Assembly: GCF_003864335.1 (NCBI RefSeq)
Contig: NZ_BEXA01000003.1
Coordinates: forward strand, 124,001-188,000
Direction of reading: 5' to 3'
Source: Lentilactobacillus kosonis
Lineage (GTDB): Bacteria > Bacillota > Bacilli > Lactobacillales > Lactobacillaceae
Length of the DNA stretch: 64,000 nt
Shown in pieces: positions 40,848 through 46,481 of the stretch (positions are counted from its first letter, which is position 1; each line of letters begins with the position of its first letter). The position numbers were made by a program, and so were the translations under genes. The notes under the pieces are model-generated. The model was not told the origin of the DNA. It worked only from the letters and a program-made list of their open reading frames with translations, and ran no database searches.

Positions 40848-40871
40848 CGATATCCATCTCTCCTTTTAGGT

Positions 40872-40917
40872 AAAACGCGAACATTATTTTATAATAAAAA
40901 TATAGCATTCGTTATTT
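40872..40917. promoter_or_regulatory. PurBox pair (PurR operator) upstream of the purine permease
   Basis: Box 1, AAAACGCGAACATTA (40872-40886, plus strand) and box 2, AAATAACGAATGCTA (reverse complement of 40903-40917) face each other across 16 nt. Two inverted PurBoxes 16-17 nt apart is the known geometry of Bacillus-type PurR operators (consensus AWWWCCGAACWWT). They lie just downstream of the promoter at 40928-40956, which suits repression. Confidence 0.7.
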
Positions 40918-40927
40918 GTTGTTCACA

Positions 40928-40956
40928 AGTATAGTTTATTAAATTCAGTTTTTCAA
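40928..40956 (-). promoter_or_regulatory. Promoter of the purine permease gene
   Basis: Minus strand TTGAAA (40956-40951), 17-nt spacer, TATACT (40933-40928); about 80 nt before the start codon, flanked on both sides by PurBox sequences. Confidence 0.75.
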
Positions 40957-40980
40957 GCTATTTTTCAATTTAATTCATTT

Positions 40981-40995
40981 AAATGTTCGTGTTTT
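40981..40995 (-). promoter_or_regulatory. Third PurBox upstream of the purine permease promoter
   Basis: Reverse complement reads AAAACACGAACATTT, differing from box 1 at only two of 15 positions. Located upstream of the -35 element. No inverted partner at 16 nt is visible, so it may act alone or by looping. Confidence 0.6.
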
Positions 40996-41094
40996 GCCAT
41001 TTATCGTTGGCACAAGCGGTAGATTAAGACCGAAAGTATTCGGAATCTTGCTATTATTTTTCATTACCAAGTCCTTCAACATGCAAATATTCGC

Positions 41095-41123
41095 TTGACT
41101 GTTTTTAAACCTTACATTATGAT
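41095..41123 (+). promoter_or_regulatory. Promoter of the Trp-type importer operon
   Basis: TTGACT (41095-41100), 17-nt spacer, TATGAT (41118-41123). Transcription would start near 41130, giving a leader of about 270 nt before the first transporter gene. Confidence 0.8.
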
Positions 41124-41159
41124 TAGAAATATCAAAAAACGAAAGGAAAGACTGTCCTT

Positions 41160-41198
41160 ATGAATAAGATTACTCTCCGTCTTTGGCAACTCCGGTAA
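41160..41198 (+). CDS. 12-codon leader peptide with one tryptophan codon
   Basis: ATG at 41160 preceded by GAAAGGAAAG, then MNKITLRLWQLR and TAA at 41196-41198. The Trp codon TGG is the ninth (41184-41186). The peptide lies about 30 nt into the predicted transcript, just before mutually exclusive hairpins and a terminator, and upstream of a TrpXYZ-type transporter. That position fits a translation-coupled attenuator. Only one Trp codon is present, fewer than in classical trp leaders, so the sensed amino acid is not certain. Confidence 0.6.
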   Translation: MNKITLRLWQLR

Positions 41199-41315
41199 TC
41201 AAGCCTCATCTCACACAGATGGCGCTTGATCTCTTTGCGATGATTAAAGCGCATCTGTGCCGGCAGTGTTTCTAACAACGCAACGGTCTGTACAGGTGTT
41301 AACCTTGGCAGACCG
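41199..41315 (+). ncRNA. Structured leader RNA with alternative hairpins
   Basis: Hairpin 1 (41199-41229): TCAAGC/GCTTGA outside and CATCT/AGATG inside, starting right after the leader stop codon. Hairpin 2 (41214-41259): CACAGATG/CATCTGTG plus CGCTT/AAGCG, 13 bp with one bulged G. They share 41214-41229 and cannot coexist. Hairpin 3 (41284-41315): CGGTCTG/CAGACCG with inner AGGT/ACCT. It sits between the leader ORF and the terminator. No T-box, S-box or other named riboswitch signature was seen. Confidence 0.65.
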
Positions 41316-41316
41316 G

Positions 41317-41357
41317 AAAAAAGCAACTCGGTTTTCCATGCCGAGTTGCTTTTTTTA
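41317..41357 (+). terminator. Leader terminator (attenuator) before the importer genes
   Basis: GCAACTCGG paired with CCGAGTTGC, extended by A6 and T7 tracts, lying 44 nt before the first start codon and downstream of the promoter. It must be read through for the operon to be expressed. Confidence 0.9.
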
Positions 41358-41400
41358 TCTCTAAATTAAATTTAAAAATTTATATTAAAGGAGAACCATC

Positions 41401-42411
41401 ATGACAAAACGAAGTTATCCACTGCTCACCGCTATTATTATTTTATTAGCTTTTCTAGGCTATGCGTTCTTTGCTGAAAAGAGTGACTTGAATGCTAATA
41501 AGGAAAAAACGCCTACTGTTGGCATCTTACAATTAATGTCTCATCCAGCCCTAGATTCAATTCATCGAGGAATTGTGGCCGGTTTGAAAGAAGAAGGATA
41601 TGTACCTGGCAAAAACATCCACATTGATTTTCAAAATGCTCAAAATGATCAAAGTAATTTAAAGACCATGAGTACCAAGTTTGCTAATGAAAATGCAGAC
41701 CTTTCAATCGGAATTGCAACTCCCTCTGCTCAAGCTTTAGCTAACAGTATTTCTGATAGACCCGTCATTTTAGGTGCGATTACTGATCCTAAAGGTGCTG
41801 GACTAGTTAAAAACAACCAGCGCCCTGGCGGTAATATTACGGGAGTTTCCGATCAAGCTCCATTAAAGAGACAGTTAGGATTAATCAAACGCTTAATGCC
41901 TAATCTAAAAACATTGGGAATCATCTACACTTCAAGTGATGATTCTGCAGTCGCTCAATACAAAATGTTTAAAGCCCTTTGTGAGCAGGAAAACGTTAAA
42001 TTAAAGGCCTACTCAATCGCTAACACTAACGATTTGAATCAGGTTGCCCAACAGGCTGTTAACTCGGTGGATGCCATCTATGTACCAACGGACAACACCA
42101 TCGCTGGTGCCATTTCTACCTTAGTTGGAGCTGCAGGTCAAGCTGGTGTTCCTGTCTTCCCTGCTGTTGATACGATGGTCAAAGCTGGTGGAGTTGCTAC
42201 TTACGCAGTTGACCAATATCAACTCGGAGTTGCCACCGGTAAAATGAGTGGTGAAATTCTCAAAGGCAAGAAGAAACCATCAACCACCCCAATCAAGTAC
42301 TTCAAAAAGGGTAAATTAATTATCAATGAACGAGCTGCTAAACGGTTCAATATCCATATTCCCGCCTCATTAATGAAAGAGGCGCAAACGAAAGGAGAGA
42401 TCGTCAAATGA
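41401..42411 (+). CDS. TrpX-type ABC transporter substrate-binding protein
   Basis: 336 residues of the COG2984 family, with 'VGILQLMSHPALDSIHRGIVAGLKEEGY', 'DFQNAQNDQSNLKTM' and 'DPKGAGLVKNNQRPGGNITGVSD'. The family was predicted to bind tryptophan in streptococci from its regulation. The N-terminus 'LLTAIIILLAFLGYAFFAEKS' is a TM/signal segment without a lipobox cysteine, so it is probably anchored by the uncleaved helix. Ribosome site AAAGGAGAACCATC. Its stop overlaps the permease start (ATGA). Confidence 0.85.
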   Translation: MTKRSYPLLTAIIILLAFLGYAFFAEKSDLNANKEKTPTVGILQLMSHPALDSIHRGIVAGLKEEGYVPGKNIHIDFQNAQNDQSNLKTMSTKFANENADLSIGIATPSAQALANSISDRPVILGAITDPKGAGLVKNNQRPGGNITGVSDQAPLKRQLGLIKRLMPNLKTLGIIYTSSDDSAVAQYKMFKALCEQENVKLKAYSIANTNDLNQVAQQAVNSVDAIYVPTDNTIAGAISTLVGAAGQAGVPVFPAVDTMVKAGGVATYAVDQYQLGVATGKMSGEILKGKKKPSTTPIKYFKKGKLIINERAAKRFNIHIPASLMKEAQTKGEIVK

Positions 42412-43301
42412 GTATTCTAGTATCCGCAATCGGTCAAGGCCTCACATGGGGGATCGTTGGAATAGGATTATTCCTAACCTTCAGAATTTTAGACTTCCCT
42501 GATATGACAGTTGAAGGAACATTTCCAATGGGGGCTGCTACCGCAGTCGCTGCCATCTACCACGGTTTTTCTCCATTAGTTGCAACGTTATTGGCCTTCT
42601 GTGTCGGAATGTTGGCTGGGTTAGTAACTGGCTTGCTTTACACCAAGGGTAAAATTCCTGTGTTATTAGCCGGAATCCTAACTATGACCGCTGCTTACTC
42701 AATCAACCTGAGAATAATGGGCCGAGCTAACCTTTCGCTATATGGAAAGAACAGCCTGCTAGACTTATTTAAGGGACTCCCCCCTTACTTTAACAGTGTG
42801 TTTCTTGGCATGATCGTGATTGTCATTGTTACTGCCTTAATCATTTATTTCTTACAAACTAATCTAGGCCAGGCATTTATTGCTACTGGTGATAATTCAA
42901 CCATGGCTCGCTCATTAGGAATCAGCACCGACGCCATGCAAATTATGGGCTTAAGTGTTTCCAATGGTTTGATTGCCTTAGGTGGCGCTTTAGTTGCCCA
43001 AGAAAACGGCTTTGCTGACGTTAACATGGGCATCGGCATCATCGTGGTGGCACTTGCCTCAATCATCATTGGTGAAGTTGTTTTTGGTGAACTAACTATG
43101 AACGAACGCTTAATCGCCGTAACTATCGGTAGTATTTTGTACCGATTCGTAATTCTAATTGTGTTGCAACTTGGTTTCAACGCCAACGACTTAAATTTAA
43201 TTTCAGCAATCGTACTGGCAATCTGCATGATGTTCCCAGCTTTCGAAAAGCGCTTTAACCTAAAACGATCATTATCAAGGGGGATTAGTAAACATGAGTG
43301 A
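42408..43301 (+). CDS. TrpY-type ABC transporter permease
   Basis: 297-residue permease (COG4120) with about eight or nine TM segments and 'GLFLTFRILDFPDMTVEGTFPMG' near the N-terminus, a hallmark of this branched-chain-like permease family. The mid-region 'NLGQAFIATGDNSTMARSLGIS' is the ATPase-contact loop. Overlaps the binding protein upstream and the ATPase downstream (start 43294), so all three are coupled. Confidence 0.87.
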   Translation: MSILVSAIGQGLTWGIVGIGLFLTFRILDFPDMTVEGTFPMGAATAVAAIYHGFSPLVATLLAFCVGMLAGLVTGLLYTKGKIPVLLAGILTMTAAYSINLRIMGRANLSLYGKNSLLDLFKGLPPYFNSVFLGMIVIVIVTALIIYFLQTNLGQAFIATGDNSTMARSLGISTDAMQIMGLSVSNGLIALGGALVAQENGFADVNMGIGIIVVALASIIIGEVVFGELTMNERLIAVTIGSILYRFVILIVLQLGFNANDLNLISAIVLAICMMFPAFEKRFNLKRSLSRGISKHE

Positions 43302-44067
43302 ACCTATTTTTGAATTAAAAGATGTAGTGGTAACCGTAAACCAGGGAACCCCCGAAGAAATCAATATTATGGACCACGTGAACCTTAAAATTTATGCTGG
43401 TGATTTTATTACCGTCCTTGGTTCAAACGGAGCAGGTAAATCAACCTTATTCAACATCATTGGTGGTGACTTAAAAGTTACCAGTGGTGAGATTCTCCTT
43501 CACGGTAAAGACATTACCTCGATGTCAGTTGAACACCGGACAAAGTTCTTAAGTCGGGTCTTCCAAGATCCAAAGATGGGAACTGCTCCTAGAATGACCG
43601 TTGCAGAAAATTTACTACTATCCAAAAAGCGTGGTCAATCACGCGGCTTAGGTGCTCGAAAACTTAAACAAAGCATGGCCGAATTTGAAGAAATTACTAA
43701 AACTATGCCAAACGGACTTGACCAACGACTTAACACCCCTACCGGTGATTTGTCAGGTGGCCAACGTCAAGCTCTTAGTTTCCTAATGGCAACTATCAAG
43801 CGGCCTGAAATTCTGCTGCTAGATGAGCATACCGCTGCCCTTGATCCTCAAACTTCTGCTGAGTTAATGCACGCCACAAATATGCGGATTACTGAAGATA
43901 AACTGACCTGTCTGATGATCACACATCATCTAGAAGATGCCCTGACCTATGGCAATCGGTTAATTGTATTGGACCACGGTAAAATTTCATATGATGTTAA
44001 CGACGGTGACAAGGCAGCGCTAACTAAAGAAAAATTACTATCTTTTTTTAATGATATTGATGGCTAA
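43294..44067 (+). CDS. TrpZ-type ABC transporter ATPase
   Basis: 257 residues. Walker A 'GSNGAGKSTLFNIIGG', signature 'LSGGQRQALSFLMA', Walker B 'ILLLDEHTAALDP', where His follows the catalytic Glu as in other members of COG1101. It completes the three-gene importer and is followed by a terminator. The substrate is inferred from family and leader peptide only. Confidence 0.88.
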   Translation: MSEPIFELKDVVVTVNQGTPEEINIMDHVNLKIYAGDFITVLGSNGAGKSTLFNIIGGDLKVTSGEILLHGKDITSMSVEHRTKFLSRVFQDPKMGTAPRMTVAENLLLSKKRGQSRGLGARKLKQSMAEFEEITKTMPNGLDQRLNTPTGDLSGGQRQALSFLMATIKRPEILLLDEHTAALDPQTSAELMHATNMRITEDKLTCLMITHHLEDALTYGNRLIVLDHGKISYDVNDGDKAALTKEKLLSFFNDIDG

Positions 44068-44217: not shown

Positions 44218-44739
44218 ATGCCCACGACAACTTTTGAAAATCTCAAGGATCAAAAAAGGGCCGTAATTACCAATGCCCTTATTACTGAGTTTAGTGAATA
44301 TTCTCTAAAAGATGCCCAAGTAGCTCGAATTATTAAAACTGCCGGCATTGCACGAGGGACATTTTATAAATACTTTTCTGATATCACGGATGCTTATAAC
44401 TATGTCTTTCACTTAGCACTTGCTGATTTTCACATGGGTTTTAATCATATCTCAGAAGAAAACTTCAATCTCGATGCCTTCATTGCTTCCATCTCAACAT
44501 TTATCGATCAAGTAGTTGATAGCCGCTTCTATCAGTTGTTAAAACAGCATTATTTGTACAACGAAAGTAGTTATCAGCAACATACCCTGTCCGGTATGGA
44601 CCGGATAACTAACTTGTCACCATTAATATGGACGGTTGCCACCCTTAGCCACGAAGCTATTAAGGAACTACTTGTCTTCCCCGGCCAAAAGAACCAAATT
44701 ATCCAAAAACTTACTATTAGTCTTAAAAATCTCACTTAG
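44218..44739 (+). CDS. hrtR: TetR-family repressor, probable heme sensor HrtR
   Basis: 173 residues. N-terminal helix-turn-helix 'YSLKDAQVARIIKTAGIARGTFYKYFSDITDAYNYVF' and an all-helical ligand domain. Position 72 is His, as in lactococcal HrtR (whose heme ligands I recall as His72 and His149); His145 is a possible second ligand. The order repressor-permease-ATPase is that of hrtRBA. Start ATG 44218 is preceded by GAAAGGAGTGCAGCA; an ATG at 44176 lies inside the operator and is rejected. Heme sensing is inference. Confidence 0.75.
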   Translation: MPTTTFENLKDQKRAVITNALITEFSEYSLKDAQVARIIKTAGIARGTFYKYFSDITDAYNYVFHLALADFHMGFNHISEENFNLDAFIASISTFIDQVVDSRFYQLLKQHYLYNESSYQQHTLSGMDRITNLSPLIWTVATLSHEAIKELLVFPGQKNQIIQKLTISLKNLT

Positions 44740-44750
44740 GAGGATTTGCT

Positions 44751-45806
44751 ATGTTTTTAGCTTTAAAAGAAATGAAACGCGAAAAGTTGCGTTATGGTTT
44801 AATCATCTCAATGGTTGTCTTAATTGGTTACTTAATCTTTATCCTGACTAGCCTTGCAATTGGTTTAGCTCGTCAAAACACGCTCACAATTGATTCATGG
44901 GATGCTAAAACTGTGATTATGAATAAAGATTCCAATATCAGTCTTGATCAATCAATGATCACTAAAGACCAAGTTGGTAAACTAAATCGTAATCAAGCTT
45001 TGATTGGTCAAACCCCAGTGGTTACTAAAGCGACTAATCGCAAAAATGAATCTGCTCGCTTTTTAGGAACTAAATCTAACCAATTCATTTATCAACAGCT
45101 TAAATTAATCGATGGCCATCGTCCTCAAAATACTAACCAAGTTGTGGTTGATGATCAATTCAAAACTGACGGTTATAAGCTTGGGGATAAAATTGTTATG
45201 AATTCAAATTCTGAAAAATATGAAATCGTCGGCTTTATGCATGATCAAAAATATAGTATTGCTCCTGTTATCTATGGCAGTATCAGTACTTGGCAAAAAT
45301 TAAAGGGCGTCAATCCCAATATTATCGGTAGCGGCCTGATTATTAAGGGCAACAATCCTAAGTTTGATCAAAAATACCTTAAAAGTTATTCAATGAACAC
45401 CTTCATTAATAAACTCCCTGGATACTCTGCTCAAAACACCACGTTTGGCTTTATGATTGGCTTTTTGATGGTCATTTCATTAGTGGTAATTGCAGTCTTT
45501 CTCTATATTCTAACCATGCAAAAATTAGCCAACTATGCCGTGCTTAGGGCGCAAGGAATTCCGTCTAAAGTCCTCGTTAGGGCAACCATCGCCCAATCAC
45601 TCATTATCGTAATTAGCGGGTTAGTAATTAGTGGCGTGCTTACCCTGCTAACTGCTCAATCCATCCCAATTGGAGTTCCAATGTACTTTGATGTTCCTAT
45701 TCTTTCTGGCGTCACCATCGCGATGATTTTAATTTCCATCATCGCAGCCCTGATTCCAATCAGAACTATTGTTAAAGTTGATCCCGTTACCGTAATTGGA
45801 GGATAA
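44751..45806 (+). CDS. hrtB: ABC permease, probable heme exporter HrtB
   Basis: 351-residue MacB/FtsX-type permease: one N-terminal TM ('YGLIISMVVLIGYLIFILTSLAIGL'), a large extracytoplasmic domain, then three C-terminal TMs with 'AQGIPSKVLVRATIAQSLIIVISG'. This is the layout of HrtB/DevC. Length and order match the lactococcal heme efflux permease. Ribosome site TAGGAGGATTTGCT, 11 nt after hrtR. Confidence 0.78.
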   Translation: MFLALKEMKREKLRYGLIISMVVLIGYLIFILTSLAIGLARQNTLTIDSWDAKTVIMNKDSNISLDQSMITKDQVGKLNRNQALIGQTPVVTKATNRKNESARFLGTKSNQFIYQQLKLIDGHRPQNTNQVVVDDQFKTDGYKLGDKIVMNSNSEKYEIVGFMHDQKYSIAPVIYGSISTWQKLKGVNPNIIGSGLIIKGNNPKFDQKYLKSYSMNTFINKLPGYSAQNTTFGFMIGFLMVISLVVIAVFLYILTMQKLANYAVLRAQGIPSKVLVRATIAQSLIIVISGLVISGVLTLLTAQSIPIGVPMYFDVPILSGVTIAMILISIIAALIPIRTIVKVDPVTVIGG

Positions 45807-45809
45807 AAA

Positions 45810-46481
45810 ATGACATCTCTTAGTTTACAAAACGTCAATAAAGAATTCGGCTCCGGTACGAATCATGTTCAAGTGTTAAATAATATTAACTTCACAGCGA
45901 ATCCTGGTGAATTAAGCCTAATCATTGGCCCTTCTGGTTCAGGAAAAAGTACCTTTTTAACCATCGCAGGCGGCCTACAGACCCCTACTAGCGGCGAAGT
46001 CATTATTGATGACCAAGCAATTAATCAGCAAAGTACCAAGCAACGGGAACAAACCCGCTTAACTAAGATTGGGTTTGTTCTACAGGCCTATAATTTAGTT
46101 CCTTACTTAACGGTTAAAGAACAATTCACCCTAGTTGACCGCGTTAATAAAAATGGTAATTTATCATCTTCAGAATTAGACAAATTATTGGTTTCACTTG
46201 GAATTGACAACCTAATAAATAAGTATCCCAATGAACTATCTGGTGGTCAAAGTCAACGAGTTGCTATTGCTCGCGCACTGTATCCAGATCCCGAGATTTT
46301 ACTTGCTGATGAACCGACGGCTGCCCTTGATAGCGCCCGAGTTATCGAGGTCGGTAAGCTTCTGCAGACATTAGCTCACCAGAATGGTAAAACTATCATT
46401 GTCGTTACCCACGACCAACGACTTGAACAATTTGCGGATAACATTTATCAAATTATGGATGGTACTATTAACAAACAATAA
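45810..46481 (+). CDS. hrtA: ABC ATPase, probable heme exporter HrtA
   Basis: 223-residue ATPase of the LolD/MacB class. Walker A '[17 protein letters not shown]', Q-loop 'FVLQAYNLVPYLTV', signature 'LSGGQSQRVAIARALY', Walker B 'ILLADEPTAALD'. It pairs with the FtsX-like permease 3 nt upstream. Together they would expel heme or another toxic amphipathic compound. Confidence 0.8.
   Translation: MTSLSLQNVNKEFGSGTNHVQVLNNINFTANPGELSLIIGPSGSGKSTFLTIAGGLQTPTSGEVIIDDQAINQQSTKQREQTRLTKIGFVLQAYNLVPYLTVKEQFTLVDRVNKNGNLSSSELDKLLVSLGIDNLINKYPNELSGGQSQRVAIARALYPDPEILLADEPTAALDSARVIEVGKLLQTLAHQNGKTIIVVTHDQRLEQFADNIYQIMDGTINKQ

What the first reader, a model, noticed from the sequence alone, without database searches (positions are those of the whole stretch)
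41095..41400. Unclassified attenuator-type leader with a Trp-containing 12-codon ORF before a TrpXYZ-like importer
Seen: a good promoter, a 12-codon ORF with ribosome site and one Trp codon, two mutually exclusive hairpins (41199-41229 and 41214-41259), a third hairpin, and a strong terminator 44 nt before the first transporter gene. Known: homologous trpXYZ transporters in streptococci are thought to be controlled by T-boxes; I see no T-box here. Inference: ribosome movement over the leader peptide selects hairpin 1 or 2 and decides termination. A single Trp codon makes the sensed amino acid open (three Leu and two Arg codons are also present), and I could not identify a clear antiterminator.
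Basis: partly seen in the sequence, partly recalled or inferred. Interest (0 to 1): 0.75.

Follow-up and report, generated by a model that had tools for sequence, protein, structure and literature searches.

The report
Tryptophan-sensing leader-peptide attenuator before trpXYZ
In front of a tryptophan importer in a lactic acid bacterium lies a short RNA switch that seems to watch how easily ribosomes read a tryptophan codon, and the same kind of switch may explain a widespread RNA family that had been listed as a possible riboswitch of unknown ligand.

Summary
In detail: a 12-codon uORF (MNKITLRLWQLR*), two mutually exclusive hairpins, a third hairpin and a terminator lie where stated, before an operon whose first gene passes NCBI's TrpX cut-off. 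In its genus (Lentilactobacillus) 22 of 24 genomes carry the leader; the other two show neither leader nor trpX. The Trp codon is kept; Leu and inner Arg codons are not. The alternative helices are mostly kept in 19 species, with compensatory changes. A model built without this genus recovers the window leader at E 2.5e-8. The family overlaps Rfam RF04312, the 'trpB motif', published as a riboswitch candidate. All 70 Lactobacillales RF04312 hits examined have a Trp uORF just upstream (controls 32 of 960); in an unnamed family of another class, 28 uORFs carry His, Phe, Leu or Tyr, none Trp. In folding, a ribosome at the Trp codon holds the terminator arm more than one at the stop (0.77 against 0.43). 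Best reading: ribosome-mediated attenuation sensing charged tRNA-Trp. In the window genus the last step is not borne out by folding. No experiment was run.

The parts
41095..41123 (+). sigma-70 type promoter TTGACT-17-TATGAT
   Evidence: The match alone is at chance level; similar TTGAC...TAAAAT words are visible upstream of several genus leaders (by eye).
41142..41150 (+). ribosome binding site of the uORF (AAAGGAAAG)
   Evidence: largely conserved in the 19-species alignment
41146..41272 (+). helix P0: 5' arm about 41146-41156 (uORF ribosome site region), 3' arm about 41262-41272; encloses the uORF and hairpin B:C
   Evidence: genus alignment: 96.8% of cells paired, 4 of 10 pairs with changes on both sides; slid controls 40-58%
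41160..41198 (+). uORF / leader peptide MNKITLRLWQLR*; Trp codon 41184-41186, stop 41196-41198
41199..41211 (+). segment A, directly after the stop codon; pairs with B (hairpin A:B, 41199-41229)
   Evidence: A:B 97.9% of cells paired, 2 pairs with double changes; swap test in relatives
41214..41229 (+). segment B; pairs with A or with C
41249..41259 (+). segment C (GCGCATCTGTG); pairs with B (hairpin B:C, 41214-41259) or with D
   Evidence: B:C 94.2%; C:D 91.7%
41284..41298 (+). segment D, 5' arm of the third hairpin P3; partner of C
   Evidence: D sequestered 0.78 with ribosome at Trp codon, 0.29 at stop, 0.39 without ribosome (L086 = window)
41307..41316 (+). segment E, 3' arm of P3; can pair with the terminator 5' arm (E:F)
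   Evidence: E:F five-pair core 94.7% of cells paired, 1 double change; its three outer pairs only 55.3%; weak in the window by folding
41319..41353 (+). intrinsic terminator (F:G), followed by a run of T to 41356
   Evidence: -20.5 kcal/mol; 96.6% paired, 6 pairs with double changes in the genus
41401..42411 (+). trpX, tryptophan ABC importer substrate-binding protein
   Evidence: NCBIfam NF041285 483 bits, cut-off 390; closest solved chain 3lft, E 3.1e-81
42408..43301 (+). trpY, permease (PF02653)
43294..44067 (+). trpZ, ATPase (PF00005)

Best explanation
The leader is a ribosome-mediated transcription attenuator for the trpXYZ importer that reads the supply of charged tRNA-Trp. When Trp is short, the ribosome waits at the Trp codon (41184), four codons before the stop. 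Segment A just after the stop is then free and pairs with B, so C is free and pairs with D; P3 does not form, E is free to pair with the terminator 5' arm, and transcription runs on. When Trp is ample, the ribosome reaches the stop codon and covers A, so B pairs with C, D with E, and the terminator forms. Shown here: a conserved uORF with invariant Trp, conserved alternative helices, and a ribosome-position effect on D in folding. Inferred: translation, stalling, read-through, and in this genus the E:F to terminator coupling. The leader is a divergent relative of the RNAs behind Rfam RF04312, whose examined members fit the same logic with C pairing directly to the terminator arm.
For: Leader and trpX go together in the 24 genus genomes (22 both, 2 neither). 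uORF with Trp near its end in 85 of 90 Lactobacillaceae trpX loci, 82 of them with a ribosome-site word of 4 or more bases. 70 of 70 examined Lactobacillales RF04312 hits have a Trp uORF ending 5-30 nt before the motif, against 32 of 960 control stretches of the same loci. In a family of another class 0 of 28 detected uORFs have Trp; they have His runs before his-type genes (4 of 4) and Phe, Tyr or Leu codons before transporters. Covariation in 19 species. Own-versus-swapped duplex energies favour A:B, B:C, C:T5, T5:T3 (p 5e-7 to 4e-13, 70 leaders) and not the control pairings. Terminator arm sequestered 0.77 at Trp codon, 0.43 at stop, 0.38 without ribosome (70 leaders); shuffles 0.48 and 0.50. 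A scan over codon positions peaks about 3 to 6 codons before the stop, where most Trp codons lie, and is lowest from the stop to two codons beyond.
Against: In the window genus the terminator arm itself is not more sequestered with the ribosome at Trp (0.39 and 0.39, 19 leaders). A stepwise heuristic is mixed (11 for and 4 against at one setting, 4 and 4 at another), and there the window leader goes the other way (0.00 at Trp, 0.29 at stop) with its terminator formed in both. One Trp codon only in most Lactobacillaceae. The uORF end is conserved at nucleotide level too (TGGCAANNCC[GA]G), which translation alone does not explain. 2 of 44 and 1 of 70 relatives go the opposite way by more than 0.2. 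By score the window leader fails the Rfam threshold, and an unrelated family (BSnc120) has a better E-value there. No transcript or reporter data.
Confidence: 0.85

Rival explanations
1. A ligand-binding riboswitch (as RF04312 was proposed to be): the RNA binds Trp or a related compound directly, and the uORF is incidental.
For: Published classification as strong riboswitch candidate (PMC11109978, passages read); conserved sequence in B, C and the uORF end.
Against: A uORF with Trp is present in 70 of 70 examined Lactobacillales hits, and in the other family its codons are His, Phe, Tyr or Leu instead while the motif is still recognised, though below the Rfam cut-off. The uORF body drifts in amino acids.
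Confidence: 0.06
2. A nascent-peptide arrest system (TnaC-like, recalled): the peptide ...WQSR senses free Trp in the ribosome tunnel and stalls at the stop codon.
For: W-Q is nearly fixed in Lactobacillaceae and a single Trp is usual.
Against: Residues after W-Q vary (SR, FR, LR, NR, GQ, SQ, SW), the nucleotide pattern outlasts amino-acid changes, and relatives have other amino acids there. In folding, a ribosome held at the stop favours the terminator in relatives.
Confidence: 0.05
3. The uORF responds to something other than Trp-tRNA, for example a general slow-down of translation or an antibiotic at the RLW codons.
For: RLW resembles macrolide-sensitive +XW motifs (recalled, not tested).
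Against: RLW is seen in the window and two near relatives (L003, L004); others have NRSW, LQTW, LNSSW and so on. The main downstream genes are trpX or trpB.
Confidence: 0.03
4. A T-box or T-box derivative.
For: S. suis trpXYZ is T-box controlled (PMC9382623, passages read), and a table lists a Trp T-box ABC transporter in L. plantarum WCFS1 and S. pneumoniae (PMC2494555, section read).
Against: No T-box hit in the window at gathering score nor among weak matches to the leader; a crude T-box word search found none in 90 trpX upstream regions.
Confidence: 0.01

Closest known systems
Rfam RF04312 'trpB motif' (SRC-39-1, strong riboswitch candidate, PMC11109978)
   Same: Window segments B, C with the following GGC, and the terminator align to it; same downstream gene kinds; its examined members carry a Trp uORF just upstream of the modelled region.
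   Different: Window scores 28.9 bits, gathering 59. In the window the second hairpin has no U run and a further step to a second terminator follows. The passages on the trpB motif that I read mention no uORF.
E. coli trp and Salmonella his attenuators (recalled) and Listeria Rli60
   Same: Leader ORF with regulatory codons, mutually exclusive helices, terminator; Rli60 is an experimentally tested Gram-positive case (PMC5864092, passages read).
   Different: Here stalling exposes the first segment instead of covering it, because segment A lies after the stop codon; single Trp codon in this genus. Sequence relation to those leaders was not searched beyond Rfam.
His leader-peptide attenuators of Peptostreptococcaceae, B. 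cereus group and Erysipelotrichales (PMC9413887, PMC2965389; passages read)
   Same: His-run leader peptides before his genes, as in L057, L063, L070, L071.
   Different: The passages I read do not connect them to the trpB motif or to Trp, Phe, Tyr or Leu versions.
Trp T-box of S. suis trpXYZ (PMC9382623, passages read)
   Same: Same operon, same amino acid, same predicted output.
   Different: There a tRNA binds the RNA directly; no T-box match here.

Membership tests
Ribosome-mediated (leader-peptide) transcription attenuator | Short ORF with ribosome site and a regulatory codon for the pathway amino acid | tested here: met
   translation itself not measured, inferred from conservation of start, stop and frame
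Ribosome-mediated (leader-peptide) transcription attenuator | Mutually exclusive terminator and antiterminator helices | tested here: met
   conserved in 19 species; for the window the E:F arm is short and weak
Ribosome-mediated (leader-peptide) transcription attenuator | Ribosome position switches the helices so that starvation prevents termination | tested here: inconclusive
   met in folding for relatives and for segment D in the window; not met for the terminator arm in the window genus
Ribosome-mediated (leader-peptide) transcription attenuator | Read-through depends on amino-acid supply and leader translation | not testable with these tools
   needs reporter assays
Rfam RF04312 trpB motif | Score at or above the gathering threshold of 59 bits | tested here: not met
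   28.9 bits for the window; of 19 genus leaders only L017 (33.8 bits) appears at E up to 1
Rfam RF04312 trpB motif | Homology through intermediates | tested here: met
   model R1 from 35 Lactobacillaceae leaders outside the genus, some of them RF04312 hits (L028 86.6 bits), finds 19 of 19 genus leaders, window 40 bits E 2.5e-8, and the RF04312 place of G421 outside the family; it misses other RF04312 carriers such as G267 and G434
T-box (RF00230) | Match to the covariance model | tested here: not met
Ligand-binding riboswitch | Direct ligand binding by the RNA | not testable with these tools
   codon differences among relatives speak against it

The most novel reading that the evidence does not exclude
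RF04312, listed as an orphan riboswitch candidate with more than 900 members, is not a riboswitch but one homologous family of leader-peptide attenuators in Bacillota whose specificity was switched among Trp, His, Phe, Tyr and Leu by replacing the last codons of the uORF on an otherwise retained RNA scaffold; in Lentilactobacillus it grew an extra pair of segments, giving a seven-segment relay.
Probability: 0.7. Interest if true: 0.7.

Novelty: new variant of a known kind. Interest (0 to 1): 0.62.

Why it matters
If true, it gives a concrete, testable identity to a large orphan RNA family and takes it off the list of sought riboswitch ligands. It predicts that Lactobacillaceae commonly govern tryptophan import by ribosome-mediated attenuation, where S. 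suis uses a T-box for the related operon. The codons of the uORF could also help to predict substrates of poorly known amino-acid transporters (NSS and TrpXYZ-like).

Tried and rejected
Rfam at gathering score over the whole window: nothing. Of 18 weak matches to the leader, BSnc120 has the best E-value (0.0015, 24.7 bits, cut-off 114), better than RF04312 (0.032, 28.9 bits, cut-off 59); I took BSnc120 and the 16 others as chance, and RF04312 as a lead because of the downstream genes its paper names. RF04312 run on the genus gave 3 of 24 genomes, none over the cut-off and none at the trpX leader; these loci (L025-L027) have no Trp uORF, so the plain Rfam model misses this genus. The phylum sample gave 4 of 398: L021 and L022 fit, L023 and L024 look like chance.

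My first terminator picker chose the wrong hairpin in leaders with two terminators and was replaced. For the window genus, folding of the terminator arm shows no ribosome effect, and a stepwise heuristic gave mixed results, so the E:F step stays inferred. I looked for a partner of the conserved uORF nucleotides without ribosome; pairing was spread over self, upstream and downstream sites (68 leaders). Two weak extra hits of R1 in the window's genome (21.2 and 20.2 bits) were printed and not pursued. In a class sample R1 hit 7 of 299 genomes: three of the family, G421, and three weak ones outside the order that I printed but did not analyse. The macrolide reading of RLW was dropped because the motif is not conserved.

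Rows dropped or partial: 5 of 90 trpX loci without a picked uORF (L103, L123, L133, L148, L156; L103 keeps a WQSR-like stretch without a recognised start); no Rfam hit, T-box included, in those five at E up to 0.01 (four of them are only about 700 bases). The 90 are 30 loci given plus 60 rows at odd positions of a capped list, one replaced because it lay at a contig end. In these loci the uORF was picked by its Trp codon (TGG followed by CAA, CAG or CAC, or one special case), so the 85 is not a blind count; the picks for RF04312 hits did not require Trp. Of 210 matching genomes I examined 70 hits: 30 given as loci (best scores) and 40 fetched from further rows of the capped list, favouring genomes with two copies and spread. 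Family f137: 30 of 33 listed hits were held; L084 has no uORF, L076 has a Leu-run uORF seen by eye only; 4 leaders had no picked terminator. 10 of 41 leaders had no picked third hairpin. The residue count labels L060 and L078 as Leu because codons after the FFNNHF run fall in its window; I read them as Phe.

Full report
WHAT IS THERE. The leader folds far better than shuffles (z -6.5). The promoter match is not above chance by itself. The first gene passes NCBI's equivalog model for the tryptophan-binding protein TrpX, 483 bits against a cut-off of 390, and its nearest solved chain is 3lft, which the S. suis TrpX paper describes as holding tryptophan (PMC9382623, passages).

THE GENUS. A DNA search finds the leader in 19 of 24 genomes; model R1 finds 22 of 24, and the other two, G007 and G011, show no TrpX homolog at E 1e-30, while G006, G016 and G020, missed by the DNA search, have both side by side. 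In the 19 aligned species the uORF always ends W-Q-x-R-stop while its body varies; it is 12 or 13 codons long. Base-pair counts on that alignment, percent of cells paired: P0 96.8, A:B 97.9, B:C 94.2, C:D 91.7, P3 87.4, E:F core 94.7 (its outer three pairs 55.3), terminator 96.6. Sliding partners by one to three columns drops this to 26-37% for the two relay structures and 40-58% for P0. At least one pair with changes on both sides occurs in each helix except the inner GATC hairpin and the outer E:F pairs. C can pair with B or with D, which share a word; where B changes (ACAGATG to TCGGATG in L015, L017, L019) D changes with it.

WIDER RELATIVES BY GENE. A TrpX search in the family found homologs in 276 of 301 genomes. 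Of 90 loci examined (30 given, 60 fetched; 15 from the window's genus), 85 carry a uORF with Trp three to eight codons from its stop, 59 of 85 exactly four codons before. These uORFs were picked by their Trp codon; 82 of 85 also have a ribosome-site word of at least four bases. Among 84 W-Q rows tallied (two, L148 and L155, are false picks) the Gln codon is CAA in 81 and the next codon ends in C in 82, through changes of amino acid (AGC 65, TTC 7, AAC 3, GGC 3, CTC 2, TCC 1, GTC 1), which points to an added RNA-level constraint that I cannot explain.

LINK TO RF04312. Among 18 weak Rfam matches to the leader, RF04312 (trpB motif) has the highest bit score, 28.9 against gathering 59, E 0.032; BSnc120 has the better E-value, 0.0015, at 24.7 bits against a cut-off of 114. 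RF04312 aligns over B, C and the terminator. Its discovery paper calls it a strong riboswitch candidate with over 900 members in Firmicutes and Fusobacteria, most often before an uncharacterised ABC transporter, and says a classic attenuator cannot be ruled out (PMC11109978, passages). A search of the held library for RF04312 or trpB motif returns only that paper; five further searches on leader peptides and attenuation in these bacteria list nothing that by title, abstract start or the passages I read links them. A model built from 35 Lactobacillaceae leaders outside the genus, RF04312 hits such as L028 (86.6 bits) among them, recovers 19 of 19 genus leaders, the window at 40 bits and E 2.5e-8. 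The model includes the conserved uORF end, which adds to the score. In the window's genome the next best place is at E 0.03 against 7.5e-7.

RF04312 MEMBERS HAVE UORFS. In the order, 210 of 395 genomes have a hit at E 0.001, 59 over the cut-off. I examined 70 hits: 70 of 70 have a uORF with a ribosome site and Trp within the last nine codons, ending 5 to 30 nt before the motif; the same test on shifted and reverse-strand stretches of these loci gives 32 of 960. Downstream proteins by BLAST grouping: 56 TrpX, 6 TrpB (L034 checked, 612 bits), 8 other or unassigned. In family f137, of the same phylum but another class (unnamed; Peptostreptococcaceae-like by comparison with PMC9413887, an inference), 20 of 96 genomes have hits, none over the cut-off. 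Of 30 loci, 28 have a detected uORF and L076 one seen by eye. None has Trp. His runs precede his-type genes in 4 of 4 (L070 passes hisS; L057 is hisZ-like below its cut-off; L063 and L071 by similarity). Leu, Tyr or Phe codons precede NSS symporters (19 loci): Leu-type proteins group together (78-96% identity among best matches), Tyr-type too (68-91%), Phe-type fall in several groups with some members about equally near to Tyr-type. Phe codons precede a PF02653 permease in 5 of 5 (L059 checked; others by similarity). The amino acid carried by these transporters is not known from my calls. The five chance-looking hits L023-L027 have no Trp uORF.

MECHANISM TESTS. Duplex energies of own segments beat segments swapped from other species for A:B, B:C, C:T5 and T5:T3 (70 leaders, p between 5e-7 and 4e-13; 24 of f137, p 0.02 to 1e-7); A:C, B:T5 and B:T3 do not, and A:T5 is weaker than swaps in the 70. 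With the ribosome modelled at the Trp codon the terminator 5' arm is held by upstream RNA to 0.77, at the stop 0.43, without ribosome 0.38; 51 of 70 differ by more than 0.2 in the expected direction, 1 in the other; shuffled spacers give 0.48 and 0.50, with 9% and 14% beyond 0.2 either way. The f137 set, with the stall put five codons before the stop in all, gives 0.70, 0.45, 0.50 (13 of 24, none against; shuffles 0.50 and 0.53). Lactobacillaceae with a first terminator give 0.70, 0.53, 0.39 (18 of 44, 2 against; shuffles 0.55 and 0.52, 14% and 7%). In 31 leaders whose third hairpin was taken without a U run, D gives 0.74 and 0.55 (13 for, none against; shuffles 0.60 and 0.57, 11% beyond 0.2), and the window 0.78, 0.29, 0.39. 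Moving the ribosome codon by codon, sequestration peaks about 3 to 6 codons before the stop and is lowest from the stop to two codons beyond; it rises again for positions past the stop that no ribosome would occupy. Trp lies at -4 to -6 in 72 of 85 and 53 of 70 leaders. These leaders are related by descent, so the p-values overstate independence.

WHAT REMAINS OPEN. In most of the genus P3 has no U run and the terminator is one step further; L015, L017 and L019 do have a T run after P3. Folding does not show the terminator arm responding to ribosome position (0.39 against 0.39, 19 leaders). A stepwise heuristic gave 11 for and 4 against, or 4 and 4, depending on one setting; the terminator itself formed less with the ribosome at Trp (0.37 against 0.84, or 0.57 against 0.79), but the window leader went the other way on its arm and formed its terminator in both states. 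Conservation of the E:F core supports the step but does not prove it. P0, which ties the uORF ribosome site to the stretch after C, may shut off further initiation once B:C has formed (inference).

VERDICT. It works like a ribosome-mediated attenuator in the features I could test, except that the last step is unsettled in this genus and read-through was not measurable. By Rfam's own threshold it is not an RF04312 member, but it is related to that family, and the RF04312 members I examined look like leader-peptide attenuators themselves. Leader-peptide attenuators in Gram-positives are known (Rli60, PMC5864092, passages; His cases, PMC9413887 and PMC2965389, passages), and T-boxes are listed for some Trp ABC transporters, L. 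plantarum's included (PMC2494555, section 10). So this is a new variant of a known kind whose main value is to explain an orphan family.

Noticed in passing
L028 1501-2004 (G481 C1): An RF04312 leader with Trp uORF is followed directly by a group II intron (RF02001, 144.6 bits) and a reverse-transcriptase-like ORF (named by eye).
   Followed up: no
L181 (G764): A Trp uORF leader (...LNTRWQSH*) precedes a family 5 solute-binding protein (PF00496) instead of trpX.
   Followed up: partly
L062: A Tyr/Phe-rich uORF (...YYFSYFS*) precedes a branched-chain amino-acid transporter (PF05525), an apparent mismatch.
   Followed up: no
window 41184-41195 and relatives: TGGCAANNCC[GA]G inside the uORF is kept at nucleotide level across Lactobacillaceae even when amino acids change; partner or factor unknown.
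   Followed up: partly
L057-L085, L086-L175: The residues LNN or LN stand just before the regulatory codons in many Lactobacillaceae uORFs (QLNNRWQSR) and in several f137 uORFs (ISKLNNNFFFSFFR, ISKLNNLLLLANLR), hinting at a common origin of the peptides.
   Followed up: no
window 40870-41000: Upstream of the divergent xanthine/uracil permease gene two inverted CGAACATT words resemble PurR boxes (motif recalled, not tested).
   Followed up: no
window 44218-46481: TetR-type regulator followed by an FtsX-type permease and ABC ATPase downstream of trpXYZ.
   Followed up: no
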